Origin: Malassezia japonica
Taxonomy: Eukaryota > Basidiomycota > Malasseziomycetes > Malasseziales > Malasseziaceae
Assembly (NCBI RefSeq): GCF_029542785.1
Contig: NC_083372.1
Span: 124,001 to 188,000, forward strand
DNA: 64,000 bases
Direction of reading: 5' to 3'
Below are positions 7,413 to 64,000 of this stretch, in pieces (position 1 is the first letter of the stretch; every line of letters starts with the position of its first letter). A program made the translations under genes and the position numbers. The notes beneath the pieces were generated by a model. It worked only from the letters and a program-made list of their open reading frames with translations, made no database searches and had not been told where the DNA came from.

Positions 7413-10400
7413 TTACCACGCTGTATCAAAGCGCTGAATCACACGACTCGCATCCTCGGCATCCTTCTGCGCACGCTTCCGCTTGAAAAAGATAGGGCAG
7501 TCCTGGTTCGAGCAGAGGACGTCCTGTGAGAGCGAGCCCTGGCACCGCTGACAGCAGGTCCACAGACGGCTAAACTCGACTTCCATCGACGACGCACGCA
7601 TGAGTTTCTCAAAGTACAGCTCGGCTTCGCGCGGCTTGCAGTTCTTGCACACCGCCGCGTTCTGGTCCTTGAGCGGCGTGCGGCAGCCAAGGCACTGCAC
7701 CGTCTTGACGGCAAATTTCATCAGTGCACCGACGTTTGAGGTGGCCACTTGCAGCACACGCGTGTGTTCGCCGGCCAACAGCGAGTTTGCGCGCGAACCC
7801 ATGATCGGCTCAAAGATGCGCATCAAGGGCTTCGACAGCTGGTTGTCGAGGTAGTAGCGTGTATCGATTGGGATGTTGTGCTCGAGTGCGTAGAGAGGGT
7901 CCTCGGACTTTTCGTAAGCGGCACTGCCTTTGCTGCCTTTGACAATCACGTACGCGACACGGTCACCGAGCGCCGGCGCCGAGCCGGCATCGCGCTTGCG
8001 CATACGCTCCGCAAGTTCGACATGTGCCTGTTTGGCTGCATAGTCCGTTTTGGCCAGCGCCTTAGAAATGACAAGCATCGACATGTCGACCTTGTTCTGC
8101 AAGAGGTCCGCAATGACTTGCTTCGCGTAATGTTCTGCACCCTGCACGTCGCGGTCGATGAGCATTTTCTTTAGGCACGTCTCAATCACCGTGCGCACAA
8201 GGCGGCAGTTGTCACGGCGCACCGTCTCGATACCCTTGGTATCCATCTTGTCGTACTTGTCGGGTTGCGTCCAGTACAGGCCGGCGTAGCGCTTCTTGTT
8301 GATCAAAAGGTACGGGAAATAGACCTTTTCGAACTCGAGCCGGATCGGCTTCACAAAGACCTGCGACACACGCTCGGCAGCCTCTGCGCCGAGCTCCATC
8401 GCCTTTTCCAGCTCTGCAACACCAAACTTAACCATGACCGAGTCCGTGTCACCGTAAATCACCACGGCATTGTGCTCATAGCCATTCGCCACAGTGTAAT
8501 GCGACTCGACCTGGCGCTTGGTCTCTTCAATCATCTGACGACCAAACGCAGTGACGCTCATCGAGATCTCGAGACACGGTAGGCGTCCGACCGTTGCACC
8601 CGTGAAACCGTACACGGAGTTGGCACTGATCTTGAGCGCGAGCTGACGACCATCGAGCACGGCGCGGCGAAAAGGATCCGTCTCCTTCTTCAAGTCCGCC
8701 TTGGCCTTTTTACGCGCAGCAAGCAGGGCTTCCAGGACAGTCGGAAGCAGACCTTTGCGAACGGACGACTTGACAAAGTAGTTGTTGTTCGGCGTCACGA
8801 TGTAGTCTTCATCCTGCTTGAGGTTCATGCGTTCGATGGTGCGCTTGTCCAGCAGTGTCGTGTAGCATAGATTGTGTGCCATCATGATCGAGGGATACAG
8901 CGATGCAAAGTCGAGCGTCGCAACGGGCTTGTCGTAGTAGCCCTGCTTGGGCTCCAGCACAGTCGCACCCTCGTACTGCTCGTCCCCACCGTCGCCCTTG
9001 TACGTCGGAATGAGATAACCATCTTCACGCGCCTTGCGGAAGAGCTGCGACACGACCTTGATTTGTTGACCACGGCTGAGCAGGTAGTTGAACGGCACAC
9101 CGGTCACACGAGCCATCTCGGTGTAGTTGATGAAGCACATGAGTTTGTCGAGCAGGCGCTGGGGAAGGTAGGCATCCTTGAGACAGTACACAGCCAAGCG
9201 GCGGCGCGCCTCAGGCCCCGAGTTTTGCAGCTCGGTGATGAGCGAGTGATGCACGTCCTCCTTCTGCTCCTTGAGGAACTCGAACGAGACCGAGTTTAGC
9301 GAGTAGCTGCGCAGCTTGTAGTCACGCTGCATGACCTGTAGCATGTCGAGTTGCAGACGACCTTGCAGCTCCGTGTTCTTGGAGTCACGGGTTCCGTACG
9401 CTTTGGAAGAAAAGTGTGTATCCTTGACCTCGGTACGTGTATTCCGCTCGCGGCCCAGGTACGGAAAAGCCGACGCCTTGAGCGCCTTGGCGCGGTCCAT
9501 GAGGTACGGGAAATCGAAGTTGGATGTGTTGTATCCGATCACCACATCCGGATCGACGCGCTGGATAAAGTCGGTCCACGCTTCAAGCATCTCGACCTCG
9601 TCTTCGAACGACATCACATGGCACCCCATAATGTGTGAGCAGGTGCCCAGCGTAAATATATTCTTGACAAACGGCGTAGATTCGCCCTGGCGCGTCACCA
9701 TATTCGCGATCTGGATCACAGGGTCGATGTTGGGATCCGGAAAGATGCCCTTGCGGCCTGCGCACTCGATATCGAAACTCAGGATACGCAGCGGTGCCAT
9801 CTTGAGCCATTCGCCGGTCGGCGCGTGAGAGATCACCGCGTCGGGGTTGCAGTCAATCTCGATTTGGCAGCGCGAAATGCTCGCATTGTTGCTGCGCACT
9901 GTGTAGTGCCCCGGCTTGAGCTCGATCCAATTCATGCCGACGATCTAGGTCAGTACCTCCACGTACCTGATGGTCGATCATAAACCGCAGCGTGTAGGCG
10001 ACATTGTCAAACGACACCATCGAGTCGCCCGGCACGAACAAGTCGCGGAAGGAAATCTCGCCACGCTCAAACGACCGTACGCTGTGTCAGCCCGTGCCCC
10101 ACGCTTGATACGTATCTCGTACACGCGGAAAGCTGCGCAGATCCGACGCCGTAATCTTGATGAAAGCAATGTCCTCCGGCCCCGAGTACTGCATGAGGTT
10201 CTTTTTGCTCTCCATGCTAATGTCGGCCACGACGCCGTTGCCAAAAGTGGTCTGTGTGAGTGGCGAGACCTACATTCAGATAGTTCTTAAAGTCGTTGCA
10301 CGCAGCCGTCGTAAATCCGCGAGGAGCATTCACGTAAAAGTAGGGCAAGAATCCGTGGACGTGAACCAAGACCGAATGCCCCTCATTCGTCGCGCCGTAC

Positions 10401-10702
10401 ATGCGGATTTGCGGCGGGGCGTGAGGCAGCTGGTGTTCCTCGACATCAATCTGTTGAAATACTGGGTTAGCGAAGCAACATACCAATGCTGTCGACATTC
10501 GCGTCGATCGGCTCGAGCGCGGGGCGCTTCCAGGCCAAGGCAGGGTCGACTGTGTGAGCTTTGTGGCGTACCCAAACTCTCGTCTCCCGCGTTCGACGCG
10601 AGGCTCGCGAGCGTGTCCGTAAAAGACCCCGCCTCTGTGTCGATCTTGCGCTTTTTATTGCTTGCGCTGCGTTAGAACAGGCACCTACTCGACGTCCGCC
10701 AT
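7413..10702 (-). CDS. POL3: DNA polymerase delta catalytic subunit
   Basis: B-family replicative polymerase of the lagging strand, 1049 residues after splicing. Seven exons, in coding order: 10689-10702, 10572-10666, 10484-10549, 10274-10461, 10112-10251, 9967-10081, 7413-9944. Five introns are 22 nt and one (10082-10111) is 30 nt; all phases join and every junction restores family sequence (for example DSI joined to VFQQIDVEE, and DHQ joined to IVGMNWIEL). Exonuclease motif I is FDIECAG near 262; polymerase motif A is [11 protein letters not shown] near 550, motif [13 protein letters not shown] near 646 and motif [10 protein letters not shown] near 705. Two C-terminal Cys clusters (CysA near 955-975, CysB near 1005-1025) match the zinc and Fe-S sites of this family. 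All introns lie in the first fifth of the gene, and the first exon is only 14 nt. Confidence 0.95.
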
Positions 10703-10746
10703 CGTGCGCGAAAGACGCGTCGCGTCGCGCGCCTCCACGCATTTGC

Positions 10747-10752: not shown

Positions 10753-10820
10753 GCTTAAGTGATCGACTAGAAGGAACGACGCCTCATCGCTCCCCTCTTG
10801 CCACTTGCGACTACTAGGTG

Positions 10821-16364: not shown

Positions 16365-17512
16365 TCACGATGCGGTCTGCGTGTTCTCGGCGGAGGTGCG
16401 CACGGGTATGTTTTCCTGGAGCTGCTCCAGGAAGGCGGCGGCCTCGTTTGCATTCGCGAGTTTCATGGCAAAGTGCACCAGCCCTTCCTCCTCCATCGCA
16501 ACAAAGCGGATGAAACGCTCCTGCTCCAAATCGCATTGCATACCGGGGAAGAGTTTGACGTTGAGAATGACTTTTAGCACGGCGTCGGAGCGCATCACTG
16601 TGTTAGGCATAAATACGTACCAAGCCGCGCTGACGTGCCGTTTTCGTGCGTGCGCAGATTGATCTTCATCGCACCCGTCCCGCGCTCTTTCCACGACTGG
16701 TCCTTGGCCATAGTAAAGAGCTTGGCACGCGCCGAGTAGATCGTCTTTTCCTCCTCTTCGCCGGTCGTCAGCTCCGTATCGGGCCTGCGCAGAGAGCGCT
16801 TGCGCACGACAATGTCCTGCGCGTCGGGCTGCAGCGCTTCCTCCTTCTCGGCTTTGGTCCAGTTCGAGGTGTCTTTTTCGGCCTCGACGGCCTTTTCAGA
16901 GAGTGCAGTCGCCGACTTGAAGGGCGCAGAGCGCGCGGCAAACGCGCCAAAGCCCAGCTGGGGGCCACCTGGCACGGGGGCCGCAATCGGGGCGGCCGTC
17001 GCCCCAGAGACAGGCGCAGTGATCGGTGTGGCAATCGGTGCAGAGACGGGCGTCGTAGACGCACTTGACACGGACGCACCGGGTGTTTCTGTCGTAGGCA
17101 TTACAGCAGGCGCCGCGGCAGGAGTCGACGTAGGCATGCTGACCGCCGGGACGTCGGCGCCGGCCGCGTTGGCCACATCGGTCGCCTTCTCATCCTTCTT
17201 GCTGCCTGCCTTGGCCTCGTCGCTCTTTTTCTCTTTCACCTCCTCTTCTTTTTCCTCCTTCTTCTCCTCATTGCCTTTCACACCTGCAAAGGGACTCGCC
17301 GATGAGGCAAACGAGGAAAATGAAGGCTGCGATTCGTCTCCACGCACCTTTTTCGTCGTGGTGGCAGGCGCAGGCGCGGCTTCGGCCGCCTCTTCCTGCA
17401 CAGGCCCACTCACCTCGCGCTCGCGCTTTCTCCGCGCAGGCAAGGGAGGAGGGTTGTTCTGCACCTCGCTGGGCGCCTCAGCGCGCTCGGTTTGCTGCTC
17501 GGCCTCGCTCAT
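16365..17512 (-). CDS. YRB2: Ran-binding domain nucleoporin-like protein (Yrb2/Hba1 type)
   Basis: Exons 16621-17512 and 16365-16597 join across a 23-nt intron (16598-16620, phase 1), giving 374 residues. The N-terminal two thirds are low complexity, rich in Ala/Pro/Thr and Lys/Glu, with a few phenylalanines. The C-terminal RanBD1 fold starts near ARAKLFTMAKDQSWKERGTG and continues over the junction (RL joined to VMRSDAVLKVILNV). This resembles Yrb2 and fission yeast Hba1, which help Crm1-dependent nuclear export by binding Ran-GTP. The start at 17512 (MSEAEQQTERAEAPS) is the last ATG that keeps the domain and avoids overlap with the divergent BEM3 promoter. Assignment to Yrb2 rather than Nup2 or Nup50 rests on the short length and single C-terminal domain. 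Confidence 0.85.
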
Positions 17513-20440: not shown

Positions 20441-21865
20441 ATGTCGACGCTGTACGTCACCGAGCCGCCGACCGACGGCAAGATCCTCTTGCACACGTCC
20501 AAGGGCGAGATCGAGATTGAGCTATGGGCGAAAGAGGCGCCCAAGGCATGCCGTAATATCATTGCGCTTGCGCTCGAGGGATACTACGATACGTGCGTTT
20601 GGCACCGCATCGTACCTGGCTTTTGCATCCAGACCGGCGATCCGACGGGTACAGGCACAGGGGGTGAGTCGGTATACGGCCATCCGTTTGCCGATGAGCT
20701 GCACCAGCGTCTGCGCTTTAACCGCCGCGGACTCGTTGCGATGGCCAATACAGGCATGCGCAACTCCAACGACAGCCAATTTTTTGTACGTAATTGCGCT
20801 GACCAAGATTACGCTCGACGCGACGCCAGAGCTGCAGAACAAGCATACTATCTTTGGTCGTGTGGCAGGCACCACGATTTACAATGCCCTTGCTTTGTCC
20901 GAAGTTGAACTGTCGACCGAAGTGCCGGACCGACCCGTTTATCCCCCGAAACTCTTGCGCGTCGAGGTCGTGCACAACCCTTTTCATGACATTGTTCCTC
21001 GAATTACTCGGGAAGAGAAGGAGGCACAGGCAGCGGCACGGAAACGCATCGCTGAGGAACGCGCACAGCCGGAACACGAGCTAAAGCGGAAAAAGAAGAA
21101 CACGGCGCTGCTCAGCTTTGGCGAAGAGGAAGAGGCGGCGCCGGTGCCGCGCAACGCCCGCAAGCCGATCAGCAGCCACGATTTGCTGCACGACAAGAAG
21201 CTCAGCAAGAAGGAGATCCAGCGTAAAGAGCCGCCGAAAACCGCACCGCCCGCGCCAGAACCAGTACCGGAACCCGCACCTCTGTCGCCGCCGCAGGCTG
21301 CACCGAAATCCAAAGAGGTGGAAAAACTAGAGGCAGCCATTCAGCGGGGCGCACGCAGCGCCGCGCACGATACCAAGCCCCGTGCGGCGCCAGCAGGACG
21401 CGATTTTCTCGCATCCATGGTCGATCAATACCGCCAAAAGAAGCCTCAAAAGGGCGAGTCCCAGACTCTGTCGATGCTCAATGAATTCCGCAAGAATATG
21501 CGCAAGGCGGACGCGGCGCCGGCGCGCGAAAAGCAACGGCCTACCGAGGTATGGGAAGAAGAGGAGTCGATGCGTGAGTATGGCGCAAGCGACGACGAGG
21601 ACGACGGGAAGAATTGGCGCGAGCACCGGTACGTTTTTTTTTTTTTTTTGGCTGACCCAGCTTCGATTCGGGCGGCATGCCTTTGACAGGCTCGAGCGAC
21701 AAATTCTCGGTGCACGACTACGAAGTGGTCGACTCGCGCGATACTACGAGTGATTTGGCCGCATCTCTAGGGTTTGGTGGACAAGCTGCTGTGCACGACC
21801 ATGCAGCACGAGCAAGAGAGCAAAAGATCAAGCGCGAAGGGCGCCAGGGCCGCGACTGGACGTAG
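20441..21865 (+). CDS. CWC27: Spliceosome-associated cyclophilin Cwc27
   Basis: Exons 20441-20785, 20808-21628 and 21661-21865 give 456 residues. The N-terminal cyclophilin domain (about 1-175) runs from ILLHTSKGEIEIELW through GYYDTCVWHRIVPGFCIQTG to DATPELQNKHTIFGRV; the charged C-terminal half is typical of Cwc27, a component of the activated spliceosome. Intron 1 (22 nt) ends in AAG rather than CAG; joining NDSQFF to ITLDATPE restores the family motif exactly. Intron 2 is 32 nt and contains a run of 16 T. The last exon gives MPLTGSSDKFSVHDYEVVD, a conserved Cwc27 tail. Many cyclophilins of this subfamily are poor isomerases; activity here is not tested. It sits in a tight same-strand run with BEM3, RKM5 and DUT1. 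Confidence 0.92.
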
Positions 21866-21904: not shown

Positions 21905-22944
21905 ATGGCTGCAGTGGGCGACCCTGTCGTATCGCCGAACGGCCTCTTTTCGTTTGTAGAGGAGGATGTACATCGCGTTGAAGACGTTGACGAAGAAGTA
22001 GGCTTAGCTGCTAACCCAGGTATTTTTGCTCTATACCCTACGCAATCCTGTGCACGCGAATTCTGGCCTGGGGTTTGTCGACAGCAAGTCGGATCTGTTG
22101 ACGCTTCATTTCGCGCTCGGCGCACTTCCGACACAAGTAAAGCAGCGCCAACGGGTGCGCGAGTTGGAAGTATATATCCACCAAAACGTACGCTGCAAGG
22201 CTCACGCAGACGACCACGCTTCGGTCCTCGACGGGCGACACTGGCAGCGTTGTATGGCGCTCGAGCGTCTTGCTCGCCGAGCACTGCTTGCGCCAGATGT
22301 ACACTCTCCCGCATGATACCTCTGTTCTTTTTTCTCCCGACCGGCTTGCGGGCCGCTCTGTGCTCGAGCTGGGGGCAGGCACAGGTGCGTTTCCCGCATG
22401 CCTCTTTACCAACACGGCATGGGCGCCTCCGAACGCCCCGCCCGTGCAATGGATCGCATCCGACCGCGAGGTGAATATACCCCTCCTTGAAAAGAACCTC
22501 GCTACACTTTCCAAAAATGATGCAGCACACGTCCACGTCGAAGAGCTGGACTGGTTCGAGGTGCAGCGTGGCTCGCCTGCTTCGCGGAAGCAGCTCGTAC
22601 GCGACGTTCTCCGACCACTGTCGAGAAGCGATGGCGATCAAGACCTGGCCCTCGACTTGGTCCTATGCATCGACTGTGTCTATAATCCGGGCTTGCACGA
22701 TGCGCTCCTGGCGACCATGGATGCCTTTTGCGCGCCATACCATACTGCCGTTTTGGTCGCGATCCAGCTGCGTGAAGCGGAAAACACGCGCGAGTTTCTC
22801 TCTGCTTGGGTGGAGCGTGGACACTATACAATCTATGGATTGGAAGACGACATGCTTCCAGCACCCATGCGCTGCGGCTACGCCGCATGGGTCGCATGGC
22901 GCACTGGAGCGACTGTGGAGAAAGGCGTTCGGCCGACCGCGTAA
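21905..22944 (+). CDS. RKM5: Ribosomal lysine N-methyltransferase 5-like (METTL21 family)
   Basis: Exons 21905-21997, 22020-22187 and 22210-22944, joined over two 22-nt introns in phase 0, give 331 residues. The product is a seven-beta-strand SAM methyltransferase: GLGFVDSKSDLLTLHFALG early, the family block STGDTGSVVWRSSVLLAEHC across exon 3, the SAM loop VLELGAGTGAF, the acidic strand end WIASDREVNIPLLEKNL, and ELDWFE. These match Rkm5, which methylates a ribosomal protein lysine in budding yeast; the substrate here is inferred. Without the two tiny introns the frame breaks into three unrelated pieces, so an annotation that ignores very short introns would lose this gene. It starts 39 nt after CWC27 and ends 31 nt before DUT1. 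Confidence 0.83.
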
Positions 22945-22975: not shown

Positions 22976-23472
22976 ATGTCGTCGGCTCGCCTTCTTGTGC
23001 GTCGCAACCCTGCGTACCCCCTGGCCAAAATTCCCACGCGCGGAAGTAACCAGGCCGCTGGATACGACCTGTATGCCTGTGAGGATGCGCTGATTCCCAA
23101 GGGCGGCCGTGCCGTGGTGCAGACGGGCATCTCGATTGCTCTGCCCGAAGGACACTACGGCCGCGTGGCTCCTCGCAGTGGTCTCGGTATGTAACGAGTG
23201 TACTTACGTAGCTGTGAAGCACGGAATCGACACTGGTGCTGGTGTCGTAGATGCCGATTACCGCGGTCTACTTGGTGTCGTGCTGTTCAACTTTGGTGCC
23301 GAGGACTTCCAGTGTACGTCACCCTTCTAACACAGTCCACGCTGGCGACCGCATCGCGCAGCTGATCATTGAAAAGATCTCCACGCCGGAGATTGAGGAG
23401 GTGGACTCACTCGAGGACACGGACCGTGGCAGCGGCGGCTTTGGCTCCACCGGCGGCTTCAAGTCGCAGTAG
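22976..23472 (+). CDS. DUT1: dUTP pyrophosphatase
   Basis: Hydrolyses dUTP to dUMP, limiting uracil in DNA and supplying dTMP synthesis. Exons 22976-23186, 23212-23313 and 23336-23472 give 149 residues, the usual length of a trimeric dUTPase subunit. Motifs in order: AGYDLYA (I), APRSGLAVK (II, restored only by splicing the 25-nt intron 23187-23211), [14 protein letters not shown] (III), GDRIAQLI (IV) and the C-terminal arm [10 protein letters not shown] (V). The second intron (23314-23335) is 22 nt in phase 1, giving FQF at the junction where many homologues have a Val. It is the last gene of the tight BEM3-CWC27-RKM5-DUT1 run and converges on the P450. Confidence 0.95.
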
Positions 23473-42600: not shown

Positions 42601-44422
42601 CTGCGACGAGACGTTTGCCGCAAGCTGCATGCGGCCGCCACGCAGACCGTGGCCCTGGATGCGCAGCGGGAGGCACCCCTCGCTCTCTTCGTACGCGATC
42701 TCGGTGCCGTTGGCACGCAGCGCGTCGACCAGCGGCCCGATCGGGCGCTGCTTCATGCGCGCATTGCCGGTCAGCGTCACGGCAGCCGGCGCACCCGACG
42801 GCGCCAGCAGCGCACAGACCGCCGTGATGAAGCGCGCGGCGGTGCCAGCGTTTTGCAGGTACAGCGGCACGTCGACGTCGGGCGCACGCACCTGCCCGCC
42901 GTGGCCCGAGACGACGAGCGTCTGGCCGCCGTCCTCAAAGGAAAAGTCGGCGCTGCGCAGCGTACGGAGTGCGTTCATCATGACCTGCGTGTCGTCCGAG
43001 TAGAGCACGTTGCGCAGGCGCGTCGTGCCGCTCGCCAGCGCGGCCAAAAGCAGCGCACGGTTCGAGATCGACTTGGAGCCCGGCGTAGTGAGCGTCGTGT
43101 GCTGCGCCATGGGCAGGGGGAGCGCAGGGCGCACCGTTACGGCCGGCGCGAGCACGCGCGCAATGACAGGGTCCGACACCGTCGACGCACGCTCCTCGGC
43201 CGTGCCGCCAATCTTGGAGAGGAGCACAATCTTCTTTGCGCTCCCCGCGTTTTTCTTGTCGACGCGCATAATGTCGAGGAGGCGCGCGACGCTGAGCTCC
43301 TGCGCCTTGGGCAGGGATGCGATGCGGGGGTCGCTGAGCGACACCGGAAGGTCGTACGCCTGGCAGCAGCGCACCAGGCGTCCAATCGCGACCTGCGGCA
43401 GGCCGTGCTCGACGCGCGCAATCTCTGCCTCGAGGATCATGCCGATCGAGACGCACTCGCCGTGCAGAATCTCGGGCGTGAGCACGGCCTCAATTGCGTG
43501 GCCGACCGAATGGCCAAAGTTGACGAGGTTGCGCAGACCCGTCTCTTTTTCGTCGATGTTGACAATGTGCGCCTTTACGCCGATACTGCCCCGGATCACG
43601 TCGAGCAGCAAGCTCTGTGCCTCGGAGCGCGTCGCGAGTGTGTGGCCTGCATTGTCAGCGGCGCTGCGCGCCTCCTCGCCGAGCACCGCGGCACGAATCG
43701 CCTCGGCCTCATTCTCGAGCTTGACAAAGTCGGCCGCGTCCCAGATCGCGGCCGTCTTGACGACTTCCGCCATGCCGTTGGAAAACTCGCGGGGGGGCAG
43801 CGTGAGCAGGAAAGCTGCATCGACAAACACAAACTGCGGCTGGTGAAAGGCGCCGATGAGGTTCTTTCCGTGGGGATGGTCGATCGCCGTTTTGCCGCCC
43901 ACCGCCGAGTCGACCATCGCCAGGAGGGTGGTAGGAATCTGCACAAACTTGAGTCCGCGCATGAACTGCGTCAGAATAAGTACGTACCGTAGCAGCGACA
44001 AAGCCGACCAGGTCACCAATCACACCGCCGCCGCACGCCATCACGATCGTGTCACGCGTCAGGCGGTGCTCGAGCATCCAGTCCTCCATAGCCGCTTTCG
44101 TCTCGCGGCTCTTGCTCTCCTCGCCCGGCGCAAGCTCGTAGACGAGGACGCGTGCAGGCGTACCTGTAGTACTGTAGCTCTCAAAGGCGCTCAAGAACTT
44201 GTCCACAACGCCGAGGCGCTTCAGGTTCGTGTCGGTGACCAGCACATAGGCGCTCGACGGAAGCTCGGTCAGGAGCGTCTGCACAATATGCGGGATGAGG
44301 TGGAAGCCGAGCTGGATGCGCGCATCGAGGCACCGCAGCTCATGGATCGTCGCACCACTCACAGGCGAGTCATGTGGCGGCGCGTGGTACGAAGGCACCT
44401 TGCTGCCCCCGGCGTCGCTCAT
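39607..44422 (-). CDS. ARO1: Pentafunctional AROM polypeptide
   Basis: Carries out five steps of the shikimate pathway, from DAHP to EPSP. Exons 43988-44422 and 39607-43965 join over a 22-nt intron (43966-43987, phase 0; FVAAT joined to FMRGLKFVQIP) to give 1597 residues, normal for fungal AROM. Domain order: 3-dehydroquinate synthase (about 1-390; VMACGGGVIGDLVGF, AMVDSAVGGKTAIDHPHGKN), EPSP synthase (about 400-850; TTPGSKSISNRALLLAA), shikimate kinase (about 870-1040; IGMRASGKTHVGRALA), type I dehydroquinase (about 1045-1285) and shikimate dehydrogenase (about 1295-1597; GTPIAHSLSPLIHN). The minus strand opposite carries a 1173-codon open frame that I regard as an artefact. It sits between DUS2 (69 nt upstream) and MDL1 (28 nt downstream). 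Confidence 0.97.
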
Positions 44423-46561: not shown

Positions 46562-47323
46562 TTAGACTTTATCCAACGGCCGATTGAAGCCACCCTTGCT
46601 ACCGTTAGGAAAACAACGTACCGGTTCATGTACTGGCGCCAGCTGCGTTCCTTGCGCACTTCGGCAAAGCCCTCGGCATTATCTTCGACGTGTTTTCCCT
46701 GCGTCAGTACGGCGACATACCTTGCTTGTGCCAAAGTTGCCAAAGCCCATCATGGCTGCAATCTGGTCGGCATCGAGCTCTTCGGGAGCTGCGTCGGGGT
46801 CGGGCCCTTTTGGCGCATCCTTCTCGCGCTCCGTGCGGGGTTCAGGGGCAGGGTCGCGGCGGTCGTCGCGCCTATCCCAGCGCGAGCGTGCATCACGGGT
46901 ATCATTGCGATCATCCGGCTGACGGTCGCGGCGGTCGTCTTTGTGGTATCGGTCTCTGCCGGGGCTGCGCTCGCGCCAGTCGCTGCGACGGCGGTCGTCC
47001 CAGTCGCCTCTACGGCGATCGTCCCAATCACCACGGCGTCGGTCATCACGGTCACTGTGGCGGCGGTCGCCCCAGTTACTGCGGCGGCGGTCGTCCCAGT
47101 CACTGCGACGGCGGTCATCGCCCCATCCCCGGCCGCCGCGGTAGCCATCGTGGCCCTCACGCGTCCGTTCGTCATGGTCGCGGCCCCGCGTCGAGCTCGG
47201 CGGTGCGCGGTCGTCGCGCGGACCCCGACTACGGTCGTAATCGTAGGTAGATGGCCTTGACGCGTCGTATCCGCCCTGTTCGTCGACGTCGTCGTAGCGC
47301 ACAGGCGCTCTCCGCCCGCTCAT
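46562..47323 (-). CDS. SNRNP27: U4/U6.U5 tri-snRNP 27 kDa protein (SNRNP27)
   Basis: Tri-snRNP protein; in animals it influences 5' splice-site choice. Exons 46721-47323, 46622-46698 and 46562-46598 give 238 residues. Introns are 22 nt (46699-46720) and 23 nt (46599-46621). The C-terminal family domain is rebuilt only by splicing: MMGFGNFGTSK joins GKHVEDNAEGFAEVRKERSW, and QYMNR joins KGGFNRPLDKV at the stop. The N-terminal 170 residues are Arg/Asp-rich with repeated DDRRRxDW units. I chose the ATG at 47323 (MSGRRAPVRYDD); an upstream ATG at 47389 would add 22 residues. Orthology of the C-terminus is clear. Confidence 0.9.
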
Positions 47324-49896: not shown

Positions 49897-51472
49897 ATGA
49901 CTGATACGATGCCGGCGCCGGCGTCGTCTGTCGCAGCGAGCGACGAAAAATCGCATTCATTATACCATGAAGAGCAAATACATGCTAATGAAGACCCTGA
50001 GGAGTACCGCGGCCCAAAAGGCGTGTTCCGCCGCTTGGGCAATAAGCGCGCATGGCGGAGATTCGCCGTGGTGGAGTGGACCAGCATCGACCCGGTGCCG
50101 GAGGAGGAGCAGGTCCAGCGCAGTTTCTTGTCGGTCGCATTTATTTGGTTCAGTGCGAATGTGAATGGTACGTCGCCTTTCTGACGCAGTCCTGAGCTTC
50201 TCGACCGGCACACTCGCGCCGACGCTCGGCATGGGCCTGCGCACGTCGCTCTATGTAATCTTGGGCTTTGTCGTGCCGTGCAGCCTTGTTCCTGCGTACT
50301 TTATCACCTTTGGCCAGAACCTCGGCATGCGCCAGATGGTGCACTGCCGCTATTCGTTCGGCTACTTTGGTGCAAGTATTGTGGCGCTCGTCAATGCCAT
50401 GACCGGCTTTGGCTACACGATTCTGAATGCCATTCTCGCAGGCGAGACGCTCCAGGCAGTCTCGCCACACCAGTCGCTCTCTGCCACGGTCGGTATCGTG
50501 ATTATTGTGGTGATTGCGCTGTGCATCTCGTTCTGTGGCATCCGTGTGATCCACTGGATTGAGCGCTTCTTTTGGCTACCTGTGCTGATCAGCTTTGCGG
50601 TGATGATCGGCGAGGCGGGCACCGGCCCAGGCGGCCTGCATACACTTCCTTCTGAGCCCGCGCCGGGATCGCGCGTGATTCTGTCCATGGGCTGCGTCCT
50701 GGCCGGCTTCCAGATGTCGTGGTCGGCTTCGGCGTCCGACATGAGCCTCTACCTGAACCGCCGCGTCAAGTCGTGGAAGCTGTTTGTTGCCACATTCCTT
50801 GCCTTTGCATTGTCCTCGACGTCCATCCTGATGCTCGGCGCGTCGTTTGCCGCATCCGCCCAAACGATTCCCGCCTGGAGCGATGCACTGACCCAAAACC
50901 CGTCGCCCGGCCCGCTCGTGAACCTCGTTTTGTCGACGAGGCTCGGCAACTTTGGCAAGTTCCTCACGGTGCTGATCGCCCTCTCGGCGGTCGGCAACAT
51001 GATGGCCACGCTCTACTCTCTGGGACTGTGCTGCCAAACCATGTTTCCACCACTCACGGCCCTGCCTCGCTTTGTCATTCCTATTGTCGCCGTCGCGATC
51101 ATTTTGCCACTGGCCATTGTCGGGAAAGACAGCTTCTACGATACACTCACAAACTTTGTCAGCATGATCGCCTACTGGACTGCTCTCTACGTCGGCGTCG
51201 TCACGGCCGACCACGTCATTATCCGACGCACCCGTTTTTCCAGCTACGACCCCGCAATTTGGAACCAATGGCGCCTCCTGCCGCCCGGCGCGGCCGCCCT
51301 CGGCGCCTCGATTCTGTCGCTGGGCCTCGTTATTCCTCTCATGGACCAGACCTGGTACACGGGGCCCCTCGCGAAAAACGTCGGCGACCTCGGATTCGAG
51401 GTCGGCCTCGTTCTCAGCTTCCTCCTCTACCTTCTCCTCCGGCCGCTCGAAAAGCGCGTCGCCGGCCGCTAG
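49897..51472 (+). CDS. FCY2: Purine-cytosine permease (NCS1 family, Fcy2-like)
   Basis: Plasma-membrane nucleobase:cation symporter of 517 residues with about twelve hydrophobic helices. Exons 49897-50167 and 50190-51472 join over a 22-nt intron (phase 1), restoring FIWFSANVNVLSFSTGTLAP, the conserved first helix of the NCS1 family. Other family features: GMRQMVHCRYSFGYFG, NAMTGFGYTILNAIL, and the WSASASDMSLYL segment near the substrate site. The cytosolic N-terminus (about 80 residues) is acidic and basic. Fcy2 homologues carry adenine, guanine, hypoxanthine and cytosine, and take up flucytosine; specificity here is not shown. The ATG at 49897 is the first in frame. Confidence 0.92.
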
Positions 51473-51566: not shown

Positions 51567-54500
51567 ATGCCTATGGAGGAGGCGAGCGCCCCTTCCGGCG
51601 GTGGGGACGACCTGTCGAGCTTGTCTCTGGAGGAGAGGCTCTCTTCAAAAGTAGGTCGTTGTGCTGACCCAGCTATGGAAAGCGCGATTGTCGGGTTACG
51701 AGGAGCTCACGCGCGTCTTTTCGCGCACAGCGTCGGAGGACGATCCAGTTTTCGGCGAGTATGCGCGCCAGACGGACACGCTGCGCGCCATGGTCCTCGA
51801 CTCGAATGCAGCGGCACAGGAGAAGGGTGTTGAGGCTGTGTCCGCCTTTGTACAGTACGGCGGGCGCAAGGCCGGCCGCACACGCGAGCACGTCCTGCCG
51901 GCGGTCGCCGAAAAGTGCCTTGGCTCGATGCGCACCGGCACGAGGAAGGCCGCCCTGGACCTCGTGCTTCTCTATGCGGAAAACGAGGACCAAAATGGGT
52001 GCGAGGGCATCTCGGTGCGTTGCTTTGCTGACCCAGACGGACCTCTTGCAGCTCCTCTCGTCCAAGCAGCCCAAGGTCGTGGCGGCAAACGTCGCCGCGC
52101 TCCACGAGCTGGTCAGGTACGTTTGTATACTAATGCAGTGCGTTTGGAACACCACAAGTGAGCGCCAAGCCGATCGTCAAGCGCATTCCAGACATCTTTA
52201 GCCACGCCGACAAGAACGTCCGTGCAGAGGGCACGGCGCTTACCGTGGCTCTGCACCAGTACCTCGGCACGGCACTCGCGCCGACCCTTGCACAGCTCAA
52301 AGAGATCCAGGTGAAGGAGCTCGAGGCCAAGTTTGCCGAGGCCGGCACAAGGCAGCCGACGCGCTTCCTCCTTTCTCAGAAGCCCGCGGAAGCCGCACCG
52401 AGCGACGAGACGCCTGACGCCGCGCCTGTACAGGAGAGTGAGGTGACGCAAGACGCGGAGCCGGCGCCGGCGCCGGCGACCGTCGACGCGTACGAGCTCG
52501 CGGACGCCCACGACGCCCTCCAAAGCCGTAAGCTTGCCAAGAACTTTTTCGAGCTGATCGCCTCGGCCAAATGGCAGGAGCGGCTCGAGGCGCTCGAGTC
52601 GCTGCATGCGGCACTCACCGAGTCCATTCGTCTGCAGCCGGACGGCGGCTACGAGCCGTACGTCCAGGCAATCCAGCTCCGCATTGTGAAGGACGTGAAT
52701 ATCAACGTCGTGATGCAGGCATGCCGCTGCCTCGAGGCGCTTGCCAAGGGCCTGCGTACAGATGCGAGCCGCTATCTCTATGTCCTTCCTGCGCTCCTCG
52801 AAAAGCTCAAGGAGCGCAAGCCAGGGCCTGTCGAGGTCCTGAGCAACACGCTCGACGCTCTATTCCACTGCGGCACGCTGAGCGACGTCCTCGAGCCGAT
52901 CGAGGCTGTTTCGGCGCACAAGAACCCTGCGGTGAAGGCGGGGGCGATGCGCTTCCTTGTGCGGTGCCTCCAGACGACGCCTGTGCAGCCGACGCCGCCG
53001 GAGCTCAAGTCCATTGCCAAGATCCTGCTGGGTGCAATGAAGGACGGCGCTGGCGACGTCCGCGACGCAGGTGCAGCAGGTCTCGGAACGCTGCTCAAAC
53101 TCGTCGGCGAGCGCCCTATGCTTCCTTACCTCGACACGCTCGACGATATCAAGAAAGGCAAGGTGCAAGAGGAGGCTACTTCGGCTACGGTTCAGGCAAA
53201 GAAAGGAGCAGCCGCACCCGCCGCCGCACCCGCAGTCGCACACGCAGCCCGTGCACCGCCCAAGGCTGCCCCGGCATCTGCCAAGCCTACGGTGCGTTCA
53301 CCCGCGCGCCCGGCCGGCGGTCGGCCTCCTCCTGCGGCACGCACGCCGGTGCGCCCGACGCAAGCCGCAGCACGTCCTTCGCCGGCGGCGCCTCGTGCGA
53401 CACCGGTGCCCCGCGTGACGCCGGCTGCTCCCCGTGCGGCTCCTGCTGCGCCGCCCGCTGCCGCTGCGCCCCGCCCCCCGGTCTCGCGCCCTGCACCGGC
53501 GAAGGCGCCGGCGAAGGCGCCGGCCAAGGCTGCCGCGCCGAAGGACGACAAGGTGCGCTTCAAATACTCGCCAGAAGACGCCGAAGGACACTTTGCCGAT
53601 CTTGTCCCGGACAAGATCCGCGAGCAGCTCGGCAACAGCAACTGGAAAGAGCGTCTAGAAGGCGCCCAAACGCTGACGACGCTGCTGTCGTCCGACACCT
53701 CGATCGACGCCGAGCTCCTGGCGCGATTCCTGGGAAAGTACCCCGGCTGGAAAGAGAGCAACTTTCAGGTGCTCAACGAGATCTACCGCGGATTGCAGGC
53801 GCTTGCGCAGCAGAACCAGTCATTTGACCGCCCAGCAGCGGCGCTGACGATTGCCCCGCTGTGCGACAAGCTCGGCGACCTGAAGCTCAAGGGCAATGCG
53901 GGCGAGACGCTCTTGGTCTATGCCGAGATTGTCACGCCGGCATTTGTCGTGAGCCGCGCCCTGCCCGCACTCGGCGCGCTCAAGGCGCCCAAGGCGCAGG
54001 CCGAGGCGATTCTCTGGCTCGAGCAGCTGCTCCTTGCTTTTGGCACGAGCGGCGTGGACATCAAAGGCGTCGTCGGATTCCTCATCACTTCGCTCAAGTC
54101 GGCGAACGCGGCCGTGCGCGCGAATGCGACCAAGGCGATGGGCACGCTGGCGATGTACGTCGGCACGACGCTCCAGGCGATGCTCGGCGACCTCAACCCC
54201 CAACTGCGCACCAGCATCGAGGCTGAGATTGCAAACGCAGGCGCGCCGCCTGCGCCGACACGCACCGTACGTGGCACAGCTGCGCCGGACGCGGCCCCAG
54301 CAGAGGCGGCGGAAGACGAGGCCGAGGCGCCAGTCGGGGGCGAGACCGACGAGGCCGAGCTCGAGCGCCTCGTGCCGCGTGTCGACGTCGACGCGCTGCT
54401 GCCCAGCGCCGCAATCGCACAGCTGGGCGATGCAAACTGGAAGATGCGCAAAGAAGGTCTCGAGACTATCCAGAGCACCTTGCAGCCGCATCCTCGCCTC

Positions 54501-59380: not shown

Positions 59381-60161
59381 TTATTCCTTCTCTTGGCGAA
59401 AGACCATGCCCAGATTGCCTCCAGGGTGGTTCCGCTTAAACGTTGCTTTTTCGATTCCTTTGGCGCGCGTCAACGCAATGGAAAATGCATCGCCCAGAGC
59501 CAGCATAACCGTCGTGCTGCTGGTCGGCGCAGGGATCGCAGGATACGCCTCAGCGAGAGCGCCGGATACCCCTCCGCTGGGCGCTTCAGTGTGCGGAGGA
59601 GGTGCAGTGCTGCAGTCCAGCCACACATCTGCTTTCTGGACGAGAGGAGAGCTTGGATCGCCGGCCATCGCAATGCGTACGCACCGGCGCACCGGCTCGA
59701 GATCGAGAAAGGACACGGTCTCGTGCGACTGGCCCGAGTAGGACAGGGCCAGAACAACATCATGCCCGGGAAAGACGGCGCCGAGATCGCCGTGCAGGCA
59801 GTCGGCAGGATGCAAAAAGATGGCCTGTGTGCCAAGCGATAGGAGCATCGATGCAATCTTTCGTGCGATGATACCTGGATCAGAGCCGATACGTACCACT
59901 TTTTCCAATACCAACGACAATAATTTTTCCACTGGGACCCCCGTGAGCCTGTCCCGTGCTTTCTAGCGCCAGGGCGAGCGCTTGGCGGAAGCGCTCCTTC
60001 TTCTCCGGAGACTTTTGAAGCGTCTCGGAGACGTATTGAAGCGCCTTGGCCTCGCGCTCGACGATCAGCATTGCTAGGTCCATTGCTTCATCCAGGCACG
60101 CATCGAGCGGCGCGGAGCCGTTGGCCTGCGCTCCGGCCTCCGGTGGTACAGCGCCGTTCAT
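59381..60161 (-). CDS. SIS-domain sugar-phosphate isomerase-like protein (KpsF/GutQ type)
   Basis: Exons 59897-60161 and 59381-59874 join over a 22-nt intron (phase 1) to give 252 residues. The SIS fold is clear: KIIVVGIGKSG joined to IIARKIASMLLSLGT, then ALSYSGQSHETVSFLDL and ALGDAFSIALTRAKG, with the final FKRNHPGGNLG matching arabinose-5-phosphate isomerase-like proteins. Unlike bacterial KpsF/KdsD there are no CBS domains. Since fungi do not make KDO, the substrate is unknown; a sugar phosphate is likely. The start at 60161 (MNGAVPPEAGAQANG) is the first ATG in frame. Same strand as HCCS, 75 nt downstream of it. Confidence 0.85.
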
Positions 60162-60236: not shown

Positions 60237-61246
60237 TTGGCCTGGGCAGCGGCAGCAGCTGCCGCGGCGGCGTCCGCGTCCGCCCGCGCAGCCTCTGCGT
60301 TTTCGTCGGGGGTGCGGAAAGGCGCAAGAAGTTCACCCGAGTGGTACTCCTCGCACGTCTTTTTCCAGCGCGTGCGGAACGCCTCGAGCGAGTCCATCGC
60401 GGGGCGCACGTCGAGGTTGAAACTCGCCTCGTCTTCTTCCGTGTCGTCGGGCGTGGAGTAATAGTCAATTACGTAGCGCACTTCCTCGCCCGTAGGGTTG
60501 GCCTCCGTAGGCGCACGACGCACAATCCAGTCGTGGCGGTCAAACGGCGGCTCCGCCGAGAACTTGTCCGGCATCGCCCAGCCGAGCCAGCTAAAGATGC
60601 GGGCACGAGGGCTGAGCGTGCCTGGCCGGCCCTGGAAACGCGCTAGTTGCAGCTTGGAGACGTCCGATCCAGCGAGCTTCTCCCACTCCACGACTTCTTG
60701 CCATGCGCGCTCGTTCAGGAAGTTGTGGATGAGCACCATCATGTCGATGCTCTCCTCGGGCGTCTCCCATCCTTTGCGCACGAGCGCATTGTAGAACTGC
60801 TGCGGCGAGGGGTACTCCCAGTGCCCAGGCTGGTCTTGACCATCGGCGCCATCATGCTTCACAGGGCACGCAGCGGGCTTCTCCGCAGCGCGCGCTTCGT
60901 GGGGAATCGGGCACTGAGCGGGCGCATCGTACGGTGCGGCGCCCGGCGCGGCGGAACTCGGCGCACGGGGAATGGAAGATACTGTCCTCTCCTTGGACAG
61001 CTCGACCATCTGCGAAGGAGCCCTCGCCTGGGTCAGTTCGGGCATGTTGTTCAGGGGGTTGAGTCCGTCGCCCTGGGTCAGTGCGCCGCCGTCGTGGGCG
61101 ATAGGGCACTGCGCCGCGCGGCTGCTGCTCGGAGTATTAGCAAGTGCAAGTCCATGGTGGTGCTTCAGCATTGCTGCGACAGCATCCTGGTTGTTATACG
61201 CGCGGAAACGGCCCTCGCCGTTAGGCAGGGACTGCGTGGCGCCCAT
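60237..61246 (-). CDS. CYC3: Cytochrome c heme lyase (holocytochrome c synthase)
   Basis: Attaches haem to apocytochrome c in the mitochondrial intermembrane space. The product is 336 residues, single exon. Three Cys-Pro motifs (CPIAHDG, CPIPHEA, CPVKHDG) in the N-terminal third mark the family and may bind haem. The conserved core has WEYPSPQQFYNALVRKGWET, FQGRPGTLSPRARI and PPFDRHDWIVRR with VRYVIDYY. The C-terminus is an Ala-rich tail. I chose the ATG at 61246 (MGATQSLPNGEG); upstream in frame there is only a GTG. A single enzyme may serve both cytochrome c and c1, which cannot be told from sequence. It starts 47 nt after the MKK stop. Confidence 0.93.
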
Positions 61247-61286
61247 GTCGGAAGGAACCTCCACGCCTTTTCCAGGGATTTATAAG

Positions 61287-61292
61287 CACGTG
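61287..61292. promoter_or_regulatory. CACGTG palindrome in the HCCS promoter
   Basis: GCACGTGGC lies 40 nt before the HCCS ATG, just after the MKK stop codon. Confidence 0.45.
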
Positions 61293-61293
61293 G

Positions 61294-62653
61294 CTATGAC
61301 GGCGGCCATTTCCAGACGTTGGCTACGAATCGCGCCATGTCGCTGCTGGGGATTGCCTCGCTGCGTTTCACCACAGGGTGATTCATCAGCACACGGGGAG
61401 GGGGGCGTACAGTTCCATCGCGCACCAGGCAGCGATCGAGGAAGTCGCGCAGCGCTCGGCTCCACTTGATATTTTGAGCCTCATTGTCTTCCAGTTTCGG
61501 CAGGGGGGCTTGGAGAAGGTAGGTCATTAGTTCAATAGGGCCCAGGGGCGCGTCGCTTTCCGAGGCAAACGGGAAGCGGTTCATGGCCAGCTCGAGAATC
61601 GTAACACCGAGCGACCAGACATCAGACGTAACAGTGTAGGGGTGGCCGAGGATGCGCTCGGGGGCCATATAAGTGCTCGTGCCGGTAAAGGTGCCGGCAA
61701 CGCTGTCAATCAGCTCGCCAGATACGCCAAAGTCACAGAGCTTGACAAAGCCCGAGCGAGTGACGAGGATGTTTGAGGGCTTCACATCACGGTGGATAAT
61801 GCGCCGCTCGTGCAGATACTCGAGGCCGTGGATGATCGATCCAGCGAGCTTCACGAGCACTTTTTCTCCGATACGCCCACCGCGGGCCTTGACTCGACGG
61901 TAGATCGTATCCATACTACCCGCCTCACAGAACTCCATGCAGATGGTAATCGTGGCATTCTCCGGCTCAAAGAATGCGCCATAGTACTCCACAATGTACT
62001 CGCTCCGGCAAGTTTGGTTCACATTCAGCTCGCGGAGGAGCTGGCGATGGATGGTAGGATCGGGCGACGTCGCAATGGTCTGGATGAGAAGCAAGACGTA
62101 CCTTGCGAGCCACAATCAGGCCTGTGCTCTTAACACGCGCTTTGGCGACCTCGCCACTCGCGCCTTCGCCCAGCGATTCGAGCACCTCCAAGTTCCCTTC
62201 GAGGACCATCGGCTCAGAACGCGAGTAACCAGGCTCAGACGCCGAGGTGCGCATTTCCGGTGCGTCTGTATGGCAAAAGTAGTTGTTCGAGTTCCACGAT
62301 GCACGCTTGTTAGGCGACGTATCGCTCGAACTCAGGTCGCTGGCTTCCAAAGAGCTCAGCGAGAGGCGGTTCGGACCGCCGTTGCTCTCACGAGCGTCAT
62401 CAGGAATATGCATTCGCTGCACAACGCGCTGAAGTTCGTCCATATAGTCTCCAGGATTCTCATTCAGCGCCTCCTGTGAACGGAAAGGCATAATGGTCGC
62501 GTCATCGGTGCGTGTCTCGTTACGCTCGCACGAATGTTCACGCTCCTGGTTGGGAGATGAGACTGGTTTAGCATGGAAAAACGTACTCATAGGAAGTGAC
62601 AGCTTCGGCCTCCCGGGGCGCGCGGGCCGCTTCGGTGGGATTAGCGACGCCAT
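61294..62653 (-). CDS. MKK1: MAP kinase kinase, cell-wall integrity type (Mkk1/2-like)
   Basis: Dual-specificity kinase of 445 residues. Exons 62102-62653 and 61294-62079 join over a 22-nt intron (62080-62101, phase 0) placed directly after the ATP-anchoring Lys of GLIVARK. Kinase domain about 155-430: glycine loop LGEGASGEVAKA, catalytic IIHRDVKPSNIL, metal-binding LCDFGVSGEL, and an activation loop SVAGTFTGTSTYMAPERI. The stretch HPYTVTSDVWSLGVTILELA and the later PIELMTYLL favour the Mkk1/2 branch over Pbs2; the Ste7 branch is less likely. In that pathway it would act downstream of Rho1-Pkc1, where ROM2 also feeds in. The N-terminal 150 residues are Ser-rich and could hold MAPK docking sites. 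Confidence 0.88.
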
Positions 62654-63069
62654 CGCGCTGCGCCGTTCAGCTCCAACGAGATGGCCGAGTCCAGCCGGGG
62701 TTGTGGAGGTTCGGCCCGAGCAGTGAGATCAGCGCGTAGACTTTCAGCACGTGGTACCATGTGGAATGCAAGTATCTTATTACGGGCACTGCCAACAATT
62801 TCAGGCCCTCTATGTCATTTCTGCAGGGGATGAGGTAGAGGGTGTAAATAGCCCGCGGGGCACGGTCAAAAGAACCACCGATCTTCTCGACTGAGAGGGG
62901 ACGCAGGGCTGCGATGTTGACACCACCTGGCTTGGCCCGTGCATTTATGCACCTTCCTAATCCTTTTTTGTCGCCACAAGCACTTACATGCCTAAAAAAA
63001 CCTGTGCTTTGTATATCAGCTTGTTTTCTATACATAGAATATGTATCACACATCCCCCCTTTGTTTTCA
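62654..63069. other. Intergenic region MKK promoter / permease 3' end
   Basis: A 416-bp spacer, AT-richer between about 62960 and 63070. It must hold the MKK promoter and the permease 3' UTR. The part next to the permease stop is pyrimidine-rich. I found no RNA gene or repeat. Confidence 0.5.
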
Positions 63070-64000
63070 TTACAATGCGTTGCTTGCGCAGTCAAACACA
63101 CCACGGACGTTTCCAGCGTGGTAATCCAAAATAATGCTCTCGACCGATGCCTGGAGTCAGTAAAAACACGTACGTAGGTACCGGGGCCCAGGAAAAACAG
63201 GCCTGCGACAATGATCAAAATGTTTACAATGAAACCAACCCAGCCGCGAATACCGCGAACGGCATAGAAGCGCGGGCCGTATTCGGCGCGGCGCATGCGG
63301 AGGTACGCCACACCCCAGAAAATCCATCCGAAGAAGGAATCAAAGAGCGAGCTCATGAGCGACAGCAAATCCGAGAAGAACGGAATGATCTCAGCGATAA
63401 TGAAGGAAAAGACCCAGAGCACAGCGAGAATTGCAGTCCAGGTCGCCCAGCCCACCATCGTGTGGCTCGTCAGGTGCTTCGTGCCCTGGAACAGACGGAA
63501 CATGATAAAACGACCCGACACCGAGGCGTACAGCACACCTAGGAAAATTAGGGTCGGGACCATGAACGAAAAGGCAATTTTCTTTTGGACGTCGTCGCTG
63601 AGCGAGCCAAACGCGGGCGCAGTGTTGTACTGCGTTCCCGTGTATGCATAAATCACAGCGCCGACAACGCTGAAGACGATAATCTCACAGATCGTCACCA
63701 CCCAAATACACTTGCGGAATTCGTACGGGTCCTTCATCTCGGCGATGAAACTCGGCAGAGTAATTTGTCCAATGAACGTATAGGCAATGTTCAAGAATGC
63801 GTTCACACCCGACACAAACGTTGTGCCGACAGCCGGAATGATGAGGACGGTGGGATCGCCACCCATCTTGACACCGGCGGCCGTAACATGGTTCGGATCG
63901 GGATTGTATCCCGCCGGGTGGTCTTGAATACCAGCGAAAATGGTCGCAAGGAGCACACTGACAAAAGTAAAGACCGCCGAAGCAGTGCCCAGACGCGACA
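63070..64000 (-). CDS. Amino-acid permease, AAAP family (Mtr-like), 5' end beyond the window
   Basis: The visible C-terminal part is about 300 residues. Exons 63174-64000 (open to the right edge) and 63070-63150 join over a 23-nt intron (63151-63173, phase 0). Several helices are seen, with the family segment FVSGVNAFLNIAYTFIGQIT followed by PSFIAEMKDPYEFRK, then VVTICEIIVFSVVGAVIYAY. The short last exon gives ASVESIILDYHAG, continuing FLGPGTY, a pattern of Neurospora Mtr-type neutral amino-acid permeases. Ignoring the intron would give a wrong 130-residue tail running to 62667. Substrate is inferred only at family level. Confidence 0.88.

What the first reader, a model, noticed from the sequence alone, without database searches (positions are those of the whole stretch)
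9945..63173. A dominant class of 22-nt spliceosomal introns
Of 37 coding introns I could place, 20 are exactly 22 nt and five are 23 nt. The 22-nt set: POL3 (five), CWC27, RKM5 (two), DUT1, UPF2, GCD1, MDL1, ARO1, SNRNP27, FCY2, STU2 (three), the SIS gene and MKK. Donors are GTACGT (11 of 20), GTAGGY, GTATGT, GTACGC or GTGCGT. All 20 end in CT-N-A-Y-N-N-AG. The presumed branch A therefore sits at position 17, with 16 nt before it and 5 after it, leaving only about 7 unconstrained bases. Each join preserves reading frame and restores family motifs, so these are not annotation noise. Such a fixed length rivals the shortest nuclear introns known from ciliates and nucleomorphs. I do not know whether a 22-nt mode has been described for this lineage.
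Basis: partly seen in the sequence, partly recalled or inferred. Interest (0 to 1): 0.88.

Follow-up and report, generated by a model that had tools for sequence, protein, structure and literature searches.

The report
Fixed 22-nucleotide introns in Malassezia
In this Malassezia skin-yeast genome about half of the introns I could place in a 264 kb sample are exactly 22 nucleotides long and none is shorter, which points to a sharp lower limit on how small an intron this fungus can splice and may help explain damaged gene models in the genus.

Summary
Confirmed. The genome is a Malassezia. Genome-wide, GTACGT-N7-CTNAYNNAG occurs 2183 times (reversed-pattern control 3); 15-21 nt versions together 11 (control 9); 23 nt 247 (control 2). 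Coding frame jumps +1 across 59 of 62 scorable 22-nt sites. A gene finder without length preference puts 51 of 106 motif-supported introns at 22 nt, none below. Fourteen of the 20 window introns join gap-free to homologues. Two limits act together: 16 nt before the branch A and 5 after; moving one base across leaves 1 and 5 hits. They look like ordinary U2-type introns compressed to a minimum; U2, U6, Slu7 and Prp18 were found. Short Malassezia introns are in print; a 22-nt mode or double limit I did not find. No RNA was available, so splicing is inferred.

The parts
9945..9966 (-). 22-nt intron, POL3 (phase 0)
   Evidence: motif; join FMIDHQ|IVGMNW gap-free in six of six relatives shown
10252..10273 (-). 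22-nt intron, POL3 (phase 0)
   Evidence: join KNYLN|TTFG gap-free in five of six relatives; the sixth, M. furfur, carries VRVALTQ exactly here
10462..10483 (-). 22-nt intron, POL3 (phase 1)
   Evidence: join DSI|VFQQID gap-free in five of six relatives, M. furfur lacks the upstream stretch
10550..10571 (-). 22-nt intron, POL3 (phase 1)
   Evidence: recovered by gene finder; homology inconclusive (variable N-terminus)
10667..10688 (-). 22-nt intron, POL3 (phase 2)
   Evidence: recovered by gene finder; homology inconclusive
20786..20807 (+). 22-nt intron, CWC27 (phase 0)
   Evidence: no gap at SQFF|ITLD against solved CWC27 5z56 (nearest gap several residues upstream)
21998..22019 (+).
   Evidence: gene finder chose another donor with the same acceptor; open joined protein; junction outside the Pfam match
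22188..22209 (+).
   Evidence: junction outside the Pfam match
23314..23335 (+). 22-nt intron, DUT1
   Evidence: missed by gene finder; gap-free against a solved dUTPase
32042..32063 (+). 22-nt intron, UPF2 (phase 0)
   Evidence: gap-free in five of five relatives; gene finder chose a 37-nt version with the same donor
34728..34749 (-).
   Evidence: missed by gene finder; junction outside the Pfam match, homology at the junction not tested
37790..37811 (-).
   Evidence: gap-free in PTVL|LLDEATSALD
43966..43987 (-). 22-nt intron, ARO1 (phase 0)
   Evidence: VAAT|FMRG gap-free against solved AROM polypeptide 6hqv
46699..46720 (-). 22-nt intron, SNRNP27 (phase 0)
   Evidence: missed by gene finder; gap-free TSK|GKHVE against the solved 27 kDa protein 6qw6
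50168..50189 (+). 22-nt intron, FCY2-like permease (phase 1)
   Evidence: junction inside the Pfam Transp_cyt_pur match 66-441, local gaps not inspected
51651..51672 (+). 22-nt intron, STU2 (phase 0)
   Evidence: gap-free in seven of nine relatives; one has only three residues upstream and one lacks residues here
52015..52036 (+). 22-nt intron, STU2 (phase 0)
   Evidence: gap-free in nine of nine relatives
52117..52138 (+). 22-nt intron, STU2 (phase 2)
   Evidence: gap-free in nine of nine relatives
59875..59896 (-). 22-nt intron, SIS-domain sugar isomerase (phase 1)
   Evidence: gap-free GKSGIIARK region
62080..62101 (-). 22-nt intron, MKK (phase 0)
   Evidence: gap-free GLIVARK|TIATS against MEK1
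16598..16620 (-). 23-nt intron, RanBP1-domain gene
31791..31813 (+). 23-nt intron, UPF2 (phase 0)
   Evidence: gap-free in three of five relatives, the other two lack residues just downstream
46599..46621 (-). 23-nt intron, SNRNP27 (second intron, six bases after the branch A)
   Evidence: gap-free QYMNR|KGGFNRPL
63151..63173 (-). 23-nt intron, transporter-like gene
23187..23211 (+). 25-nt intron, DUT1
   Evidence: gap-free RSGL|AVKHG

Best explanation
These are major (U2-type) spliceosomal introns of a Malassezia yeast, compressed to the smallest size its spliceosome accepts. The 5' site GTACGT is read by U1 and then the U6 ACAGA box. The branch site RCTNAC pairs with the U2 GUAGUA element. 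The A at position 17 attacks G1 to make a 17-nt lariat loop, and exon ligation uses the first AG, ending five bases after that A, with no polypyrimidine tract. The length is fixed because two minima are met at once: 16 nt before the branch A and 5 nt after it. Deletion, or selection for economy, drove about half of the introns down to that limit. Shown: sequence, spacing, frame jump, homology across joins, and matches to the named components. Inferred: that splicing occurs, that position 17 is the branch point, the RNA pairings, that the limits are steric, and that deletion pressure produced the pile-up.
For: Length spike (GTACGT donors, CTNAYNNAG ends): 2183 at 22 nt (control 3), 11 for 15-21 nt pooled (control 9), 247 at 23 nt (control 2). 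Double limit: one base moved from loop to tail gives 1 hit (control 1), from tail to loop 5 (control 1). Frame: +1 at 59 of 62 scorable of 95 22-nt sites, +2 at 9 of 10 scorable of 12 23-nt sites, no shift at 396 of 415 random control gaps. The gene finder, allowed down to 12 nt, finds none under 22; 49 of its 51 motif-supported 22-nt introns have the 5-nt tail. Gap-free homology at 14 of 20 window junctions. U2 with GUAGUA and U6 with ACAGAGA. Matches over the family cut-off for Slu7, Prp18 and a METTL16-type methyltransferase. All 95 sampled introns are distinct.
Against: No RNA evidence. Rfam's U1 model found nothing, but it rang in no control genome either, so this is uninformative. The U2AF65 match is below its curated cut-off; the Prp18 match covers profile positions 51-142 only, in two pieces, one with a stop inside. 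A deposited M. furfur POL3 protein implies a 21-nt intron at an orthologous site, so the limit before the branch A may be species-specific rather than physical. Five genome-wide hits with a 4-nt tail (control 1) may include exceptions. Three of 62 scorable 22-nt sites lacked the expected shift and 33 of 95 were unscorable. Two of 51 22-nt predictions have their best branch motif elsewhere. The genome-wide counts cover only one donor hexamer.
Confidence: 0.85

Rival explanations
1. Length is set by translation control: 22 nt (3n+1) is favoured because a retained intron shifts frame and is removed by nonsense-mediated decay, as argued for Paramecium (recalled).
For: 22 is not a multiple of three, so retention shifts frame; it also gives a stop in or at the intron in 11 of 17 phase-1 and 5 of 12 phase-2 cases, but in 0 of 23 phase-0 cases. 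UPF2 is encoded in the window.
Against: Lengths 19 and 20 would serve equally well, yet 15-21 nt together are at control level. 23 nt also shifts frame but is rarer: 21 against 95 in the sample, counting tails of 5 and 6 nt. In the sample 24 and 27 nt are not visibly depleted relative to 25, 26 and 28, though numbers are small.
Confidence: 0.12
2. The 22-mers descend from a recently multiplied intron-creating element (introner) of fixed length.
For: Uniform length and a shared extended motif, with weak extra preferences at positions 8, 9 and 13.
Against: All 95 sampled introns are distinct; similarity of the seven free bases between pairs equals column-shuffled expectation. Terminal duplications of four or more bases were rare (no formal control for that part). 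In one POL3 case the orthologous site in M. furfur appears to hold an intron of another length.
Confidence: 0.03
3. Not introns: sequencing indels, programmed frameshifts, or motif noise read as introns.
Against: 2183 genome-wide matches against 3 in the control; frame jump equal to the segment length for both 22 and 23 nt; the peptide that such a segment would encode sits in a deposited M. furfur protein at exactly one of these sites.
Confidence: 0.01

Closest known systems
Short introns of other Malassezia (M. restricta, M. globosa)
   Same: Same genus; a review says 'very short introns' (PMC7426719, passage); M. restricta KCTC 27527 has average 37.2 and median 30 nt, from annotation runs with minimum intron length set to 20 and 15 (PMC9241646 and PMC6473144, passages).
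   Different: No 22-nt mode or double spacing limit is stated in the passages I read; M. globosa averages 76-79 nt in two annotations (PMC4634964, passage), which may reflect missed tiny introns (inference).
Stentor coeruleus 15-16 nt introns
   Same: One dominant length (8173 of 8806 at 15 nt) and the same 5-nt tail after the branch A (PMC9505925, section 2.1).
   Different: Loop is 10-11 nt instead of 17; AU-rich introns; no strong branch consensus, whereas here it is strong.
Mikrocytid introns (16-17 nt) and chlorarachniophyte nucleomorph introns (18-21 nt)
   Same: Very narrow length range; conserved motifs in the mikrocytids (PMC10245619, passages).
   Different: Those are reduced parasites or relict nuclei; mikrocytids keep only 17-19 identified spliceosomal proteins. 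This fungus has matches to Slu7, Prp18, a METTL16-type enzyme, SNRNP27 and CWC27, and also has longer introns.
Trichomonas type B introns (23-25 nt)
   Same: Uniformly short class beside a longer class (PMC12316389, passages).
   Different: 24 type B introns in T. vaginalis; here about 3,400 at 22 nt by extrapolation (2183 x 95/61).
Paramecium and Nyctotherus introns, around 25 nt
   Same: Ultra-short introns genome-wide (PMC5014332, start of abstract in a listing).
   Different: Longer, in ciliates; branch spacing not compared here.

Membership tests
U2-type (major) spliceosomal introns | GT-AG ends with 5' consensus GTRNGY | tested here: met
   Built into the strict scan; with donors loosened to GTN4 the 22-nt peak remains at 109 hits, and the second peak at 18 nt (106) is the same introns read from the inner GT of GTACGT
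U2-type (major) spliceosomal introns | Branch-site motif complementary to the U2 GUAGUA element | tested here: met
   CTGAC/CTAAC/CTCAC are 75 of 95; U2 carries GUGUAGUAUC; pairing itself is inferred
U2-type (major) spliceosomal introns | Removal restores a continuous conserved reading frame | tested here: met
   59 of 62 scorable frame jumps; 14 of 20 junctions gap-free, two inconclusive, four not tested
U2-type (major) spliceosomal introns | Excision from RNA through a lariat | not testable with these tools
   No transcript data available
U2-type (major) spliceosomal introns | U1, U2 and U6 snRNAs in the genome | tested here: inconclusive
   U2 and U6 found; U1 not found with a model that also rang in no control genome
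Ultra-short intron class (fixed-length introns under about 30 nt) | Narrow length distribution at the lower limit | tested here: met
   51 of 106 at 22 nt, 13 at 23, 0 below; genome-wide 2183: 247: 11 for 22: 23: 15-21 nt with GTACGT donors and a 5-nt tail. A longer class exists too
Ultra-short intron class with reduced spliceosome (mikrocytid type) | Loss of most splicing proteins | tested here: inconclusive
   Slu7 and Prp18 matches over cut-off; CWC27 and SNRNP27 in the window. Nothing looked for by sequence family among proteins was missing, but only these, U2AF65 (below cut-off) and PF05971 were looked for
Introner elements | Sequence similarity among copies beyond splice signals | tested here: not met
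   95 of 95 distinct, free bases at shuffled expectation

The most novel reading that the evidence does not exclude
A largely conventional fungal spliceosome has a measurable minimum geometry, 16 nt from 5' site to branch A and 5 nt from branch A to the end of the intron. Roughly half of this yeast's introns sit exactly on that limit, the first spacing shifts by about one base between Malassezia species (a 21-nt intron inferred in M. furfur), and so the spacing rule is an evolvable property of the spliceosome.
Probability: 0.4. Interest if true: 0.78.

Novelty: new variant of a known kind. Interest (0 to 1): 0.62.

Why it matters
How short an intron can be, and which spacing sets the limit, is an open question usually studied in organisms that are hard to manipulate. 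Here the sequence separates two limits (before and after the branch A) in a yeast genus for which transformation is reported (M. furfur and M. sympodialis; PMC5654937, start of abstract in a listing). It also has practical weight: of seven named Malassezia POL3 proteins among the 120 listed (4660 found), five show truncation, missing stretches or inserted residues at or across these introns and a sixth starts after our second junction, so gene models in the genus probably need re-annotation with a lower minimum intron length.

Tried and rejected
An apparent second peak at 18 nt with loose donors (106 hits) I take to be the same 22-nt introns read from the inner GT of GTACGT: the examples are their tails. 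The hit 51154-51175 (-) was rejected as chance. The gene finder's 61-250 nt introns I take to be largely gene merges and did not use as a real length tail; its 57-nt POL3 intron at 10066-10122 is probably wrong, and a 30-nt segment at 10082-10111 fits relatives better but is unproven. The idea that second-step factors Slu7 and Prp18 had been lost was rejected: both give matches. Looking in PMC10581693 for basidiomyc-, Malassezia, ustilag-, intron length, cytosine or GUAC found nothing. Ten paper searches were made; nine bear on introns and gave no statement of a 22-nt mode in what I saw; of these, one search listed 20 of 1,826 papers and one search listed 30 of 83, and I opened only some. Two papers looked up by DOI from memory (recalled as the M. 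sympodialis proteogenomics and genome papers) were not held. The first DUT1 search used too strict a threshold and returned nothing; it was repeated with a looser one.
Full report
What was checked. I scanned both strands for GTRNGY donors followed by CTNAYNNAG. The window gives 21 hits at 22 nt, two at 23 and zero to two at any other length from 15 to 120. The 21st hit (51154-51175, minus) lies antisense within the FCY2-like gene and the unspliced frame there is the longer one.

Beyond the window. The window is C3:124001-188000 of an 8,433,779-base, nine-contig assembly. Its POL3 protein is 85% identical to that of Malassezia furfur over its whole length and 86% to M. vespertilionis over 95%, so the genome is a Malassezia; the species is not determined. 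Genome-wide, GTACGT-N7-CTNAYNNAG has 2183 matches against 3 for the reversed-pattern control. The same pattern with 0-6 free bases (15-21 nt) has 11 against 9, and with 8 free bases (23 nt) 247 against 2. These counts cover one donor hexamer and a 5-nt tail only. In the sample, 61 of 95 strict 22-nt hits use GTACGT, so about 3,400 introns of this length are expected genome-wide (extrapolation).

Annotation-free tests. In 264 kb (window plus C1 and C2 100001-200000) I compared the best coding frame on either side of each candidate. Of 95 candidates at 22 nt, 62 had clear frames on both sides, and 59 of these showed the predicted +1 shift (one showed 0, two showed +2); 9 of 10 scorable 23-nt candidates showed +2; the three scorable candidates of 14 and 16 nt showed no shift, as chance matches should; random 22-nt gaps in long open frames, all read on the plus strand, showed no shift in 396 of 415. 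A gene finder with a flat length preference from 12 to 250 nt predicted 190 introns, 52 at 22 nt, 14 at 23 and none shorter. Keeping the 106 with convincing splice motifs leaves 51 at 22, 13 at 23, 15 at 24-30, 16 at 31-60, 11 longer and none below 22. In the window this finder recovered 15 of the 20 exactly.

Homology at the joins. Removing the 22-nt segments gives gap-free alignments at 14 of the 20 window junctions: POL3 (three), STU2 (three) and UPF2 (one) against deposited fungal proteins; ARO1, CWC27, SNRNP27, the ABC transporter, MKK, DUT1 and the SIS gene against solved structures. Two POL3 junctions fall in a variable N-terminus and are inconclusive; the eIF2B-subunit, permease and both methyltransferase junctions were not tested at residue level. 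Not every relative agrees at every join: M. furfur departs at several, and two relatives lack residues beside the 23-nt UPF2 join.

Anatomy. The 22-mers read GT(A/G)NG(T/C), seven loosely constrained bases, CTNA(C/T), two bases, AG. GTACGT is 61 of 95; CTGAC, CTAAC and CTCAC make up 75 of 95; position 20 is C in 91%. Position 13 and the base before the branch A prefer purines, compatible with A-U or G-U pairing to U2 (inference). The free bases are hardly pyrimidine-rich: C+T is 0.54 against 0.50 in the sample as a whole.

Two separate limits. If only total length mattered, one could move a base across the branch point. Genome-wide, 15 before and 6 after gives 1 match (control 1) and 17 before and 4 after gives 5 (control 1), against 2183 for 16 and 5. 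At 23 nt the extra base may lie on either side: 12 with a 5-nt tail and 9 with a 6-nt tail in the sample. Of 51 motif-supported 22-nt predictions 49 have the 5-nt tail; longer introns often have tails of 6-8 nt and some about 20. Stentor, with a much smaller loop, has the same 5-nt tail (PMC9505925, section 2.1).

Machinery. One U2 and one U6 match were listed, both over the gathering score, with GUAGUA and ACAGAGA. Slu7 passes its cut-off over nearly the whole profile; Prp18 passes over profile positions 51-142 in two pieces, one with a stop inside that may mark an intron; PF05971, the METTL16 family, passes, but this family also rings in bacteria, so the METTL16 name is an inference; a U2AF65-like gene is the best match of its family but below the cut-off; CWC27 and SNRNP27 are in the window. 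U1 was not detected, uninformatively. That Slu7 and Prp18 are dispensable for short branch-to-AG distances in yeast is recalled, not looked up; their retention here fits the minority of introns with longer tails.

Alternatives. Frame-based selection does not explain the absence of 19 and 20 nt. Copy-and-paste introners are unlikely because all 95 sampled introns are distinct and their free bases match shuffled expectation.

Deposited gene models. Of seven named Malassezia POL3 proteins among the 120 listed, M. furfur has seven extra residues (VRVALTQ) exactly at our 10252 intron, as expected if a 21-nt intron GTACGT..CTNACNCAG was translated; M. pachydermatis lacks the stretch between our fourth and sixth junctions; M. 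psittaci and M. sympodialis start late; M. equina lacks several stretches; M. vespertilionis starts after our second junction but agrees at the 22-nt joins it covers; Malassezia sp. CBS 17886 agrees at the three testable 22-nt joins. That these are annotation errors rather than real differences is inferred, and the 21-nt reading rests on one protein, not on DNA.

Novelty. Ultra-short fixed introns are known in ciliates, mikrocytids, nucleomorphs and Trichomonas, and Malassezia introns are known to be short. In nine searches of the held library bearing on Malassezia introns or ultra-short introns I saw no mention of a 22-nt mode in a fungus; subscription papers were not available, some listings were capped, and I read passages or sections, not whole papers. 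I rate it a new variant of a known kind.

Noticed in passing
264 kb sample; loci L032, L034; window 46599-46720: Donor position +4 is C in 73% and A in 1% of the 95 strict 22-nt introns, although a METTL16-family match, SNRNP27 and a canonical U6 ACAGA box are present; work in Saccharomycotina links METTL16 and SNRNP27K to 5' splice-site sequence (PMC10581693, title and start of abstract; the +4A link is recalled).
   Followed up: partly
POL3, 10252-10273; protein P0001: The deposited M. furfur POL3 protein contains VRVALTQ at this intron position, implying a 21-nt intron there and possibly a different minimum length in that species.
   Followed up: partly
proteins P0005, P0007, P0024, P0032: Deposited POL3 models of M. 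pachydermatis, M. psittaci, M. sympodialis and M. equina are truncated or lack stretches in the N-terminal part where our gene has its tiny introns.
   Followed up: partly
protein P0151 (Malassezia sp. CBS 17886): A 2583-residue deposited protein with a permease domain appears to fuse the FCY2-like permease with STU2, neighbours in this window, suggesting conserved gene order and a merged gene model.
   Followed up: no
proteins P0121 and P0147: Unnamed public-contig proteins 99% and 96% identical to our UPF2 and STU2 cover 70% and 91% of the query, as if predicted without the tiny introns; the same or a sibling species may occur in other public data.
   Followed up: no
window 10066-10122: The sixth POL3 intron is unresolved: the gene finder proposes 57 nt; a 30-nt segment (10082-10111) ending CTGACACAG fits relatives better.
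   Followed up: partly
22-nt introns, positions 8-9: Weak extra preference for G at position 8 (53%) and C or T at position 9 (81%), outside the usual donor motif; meaning unknown.
   Followed up: no
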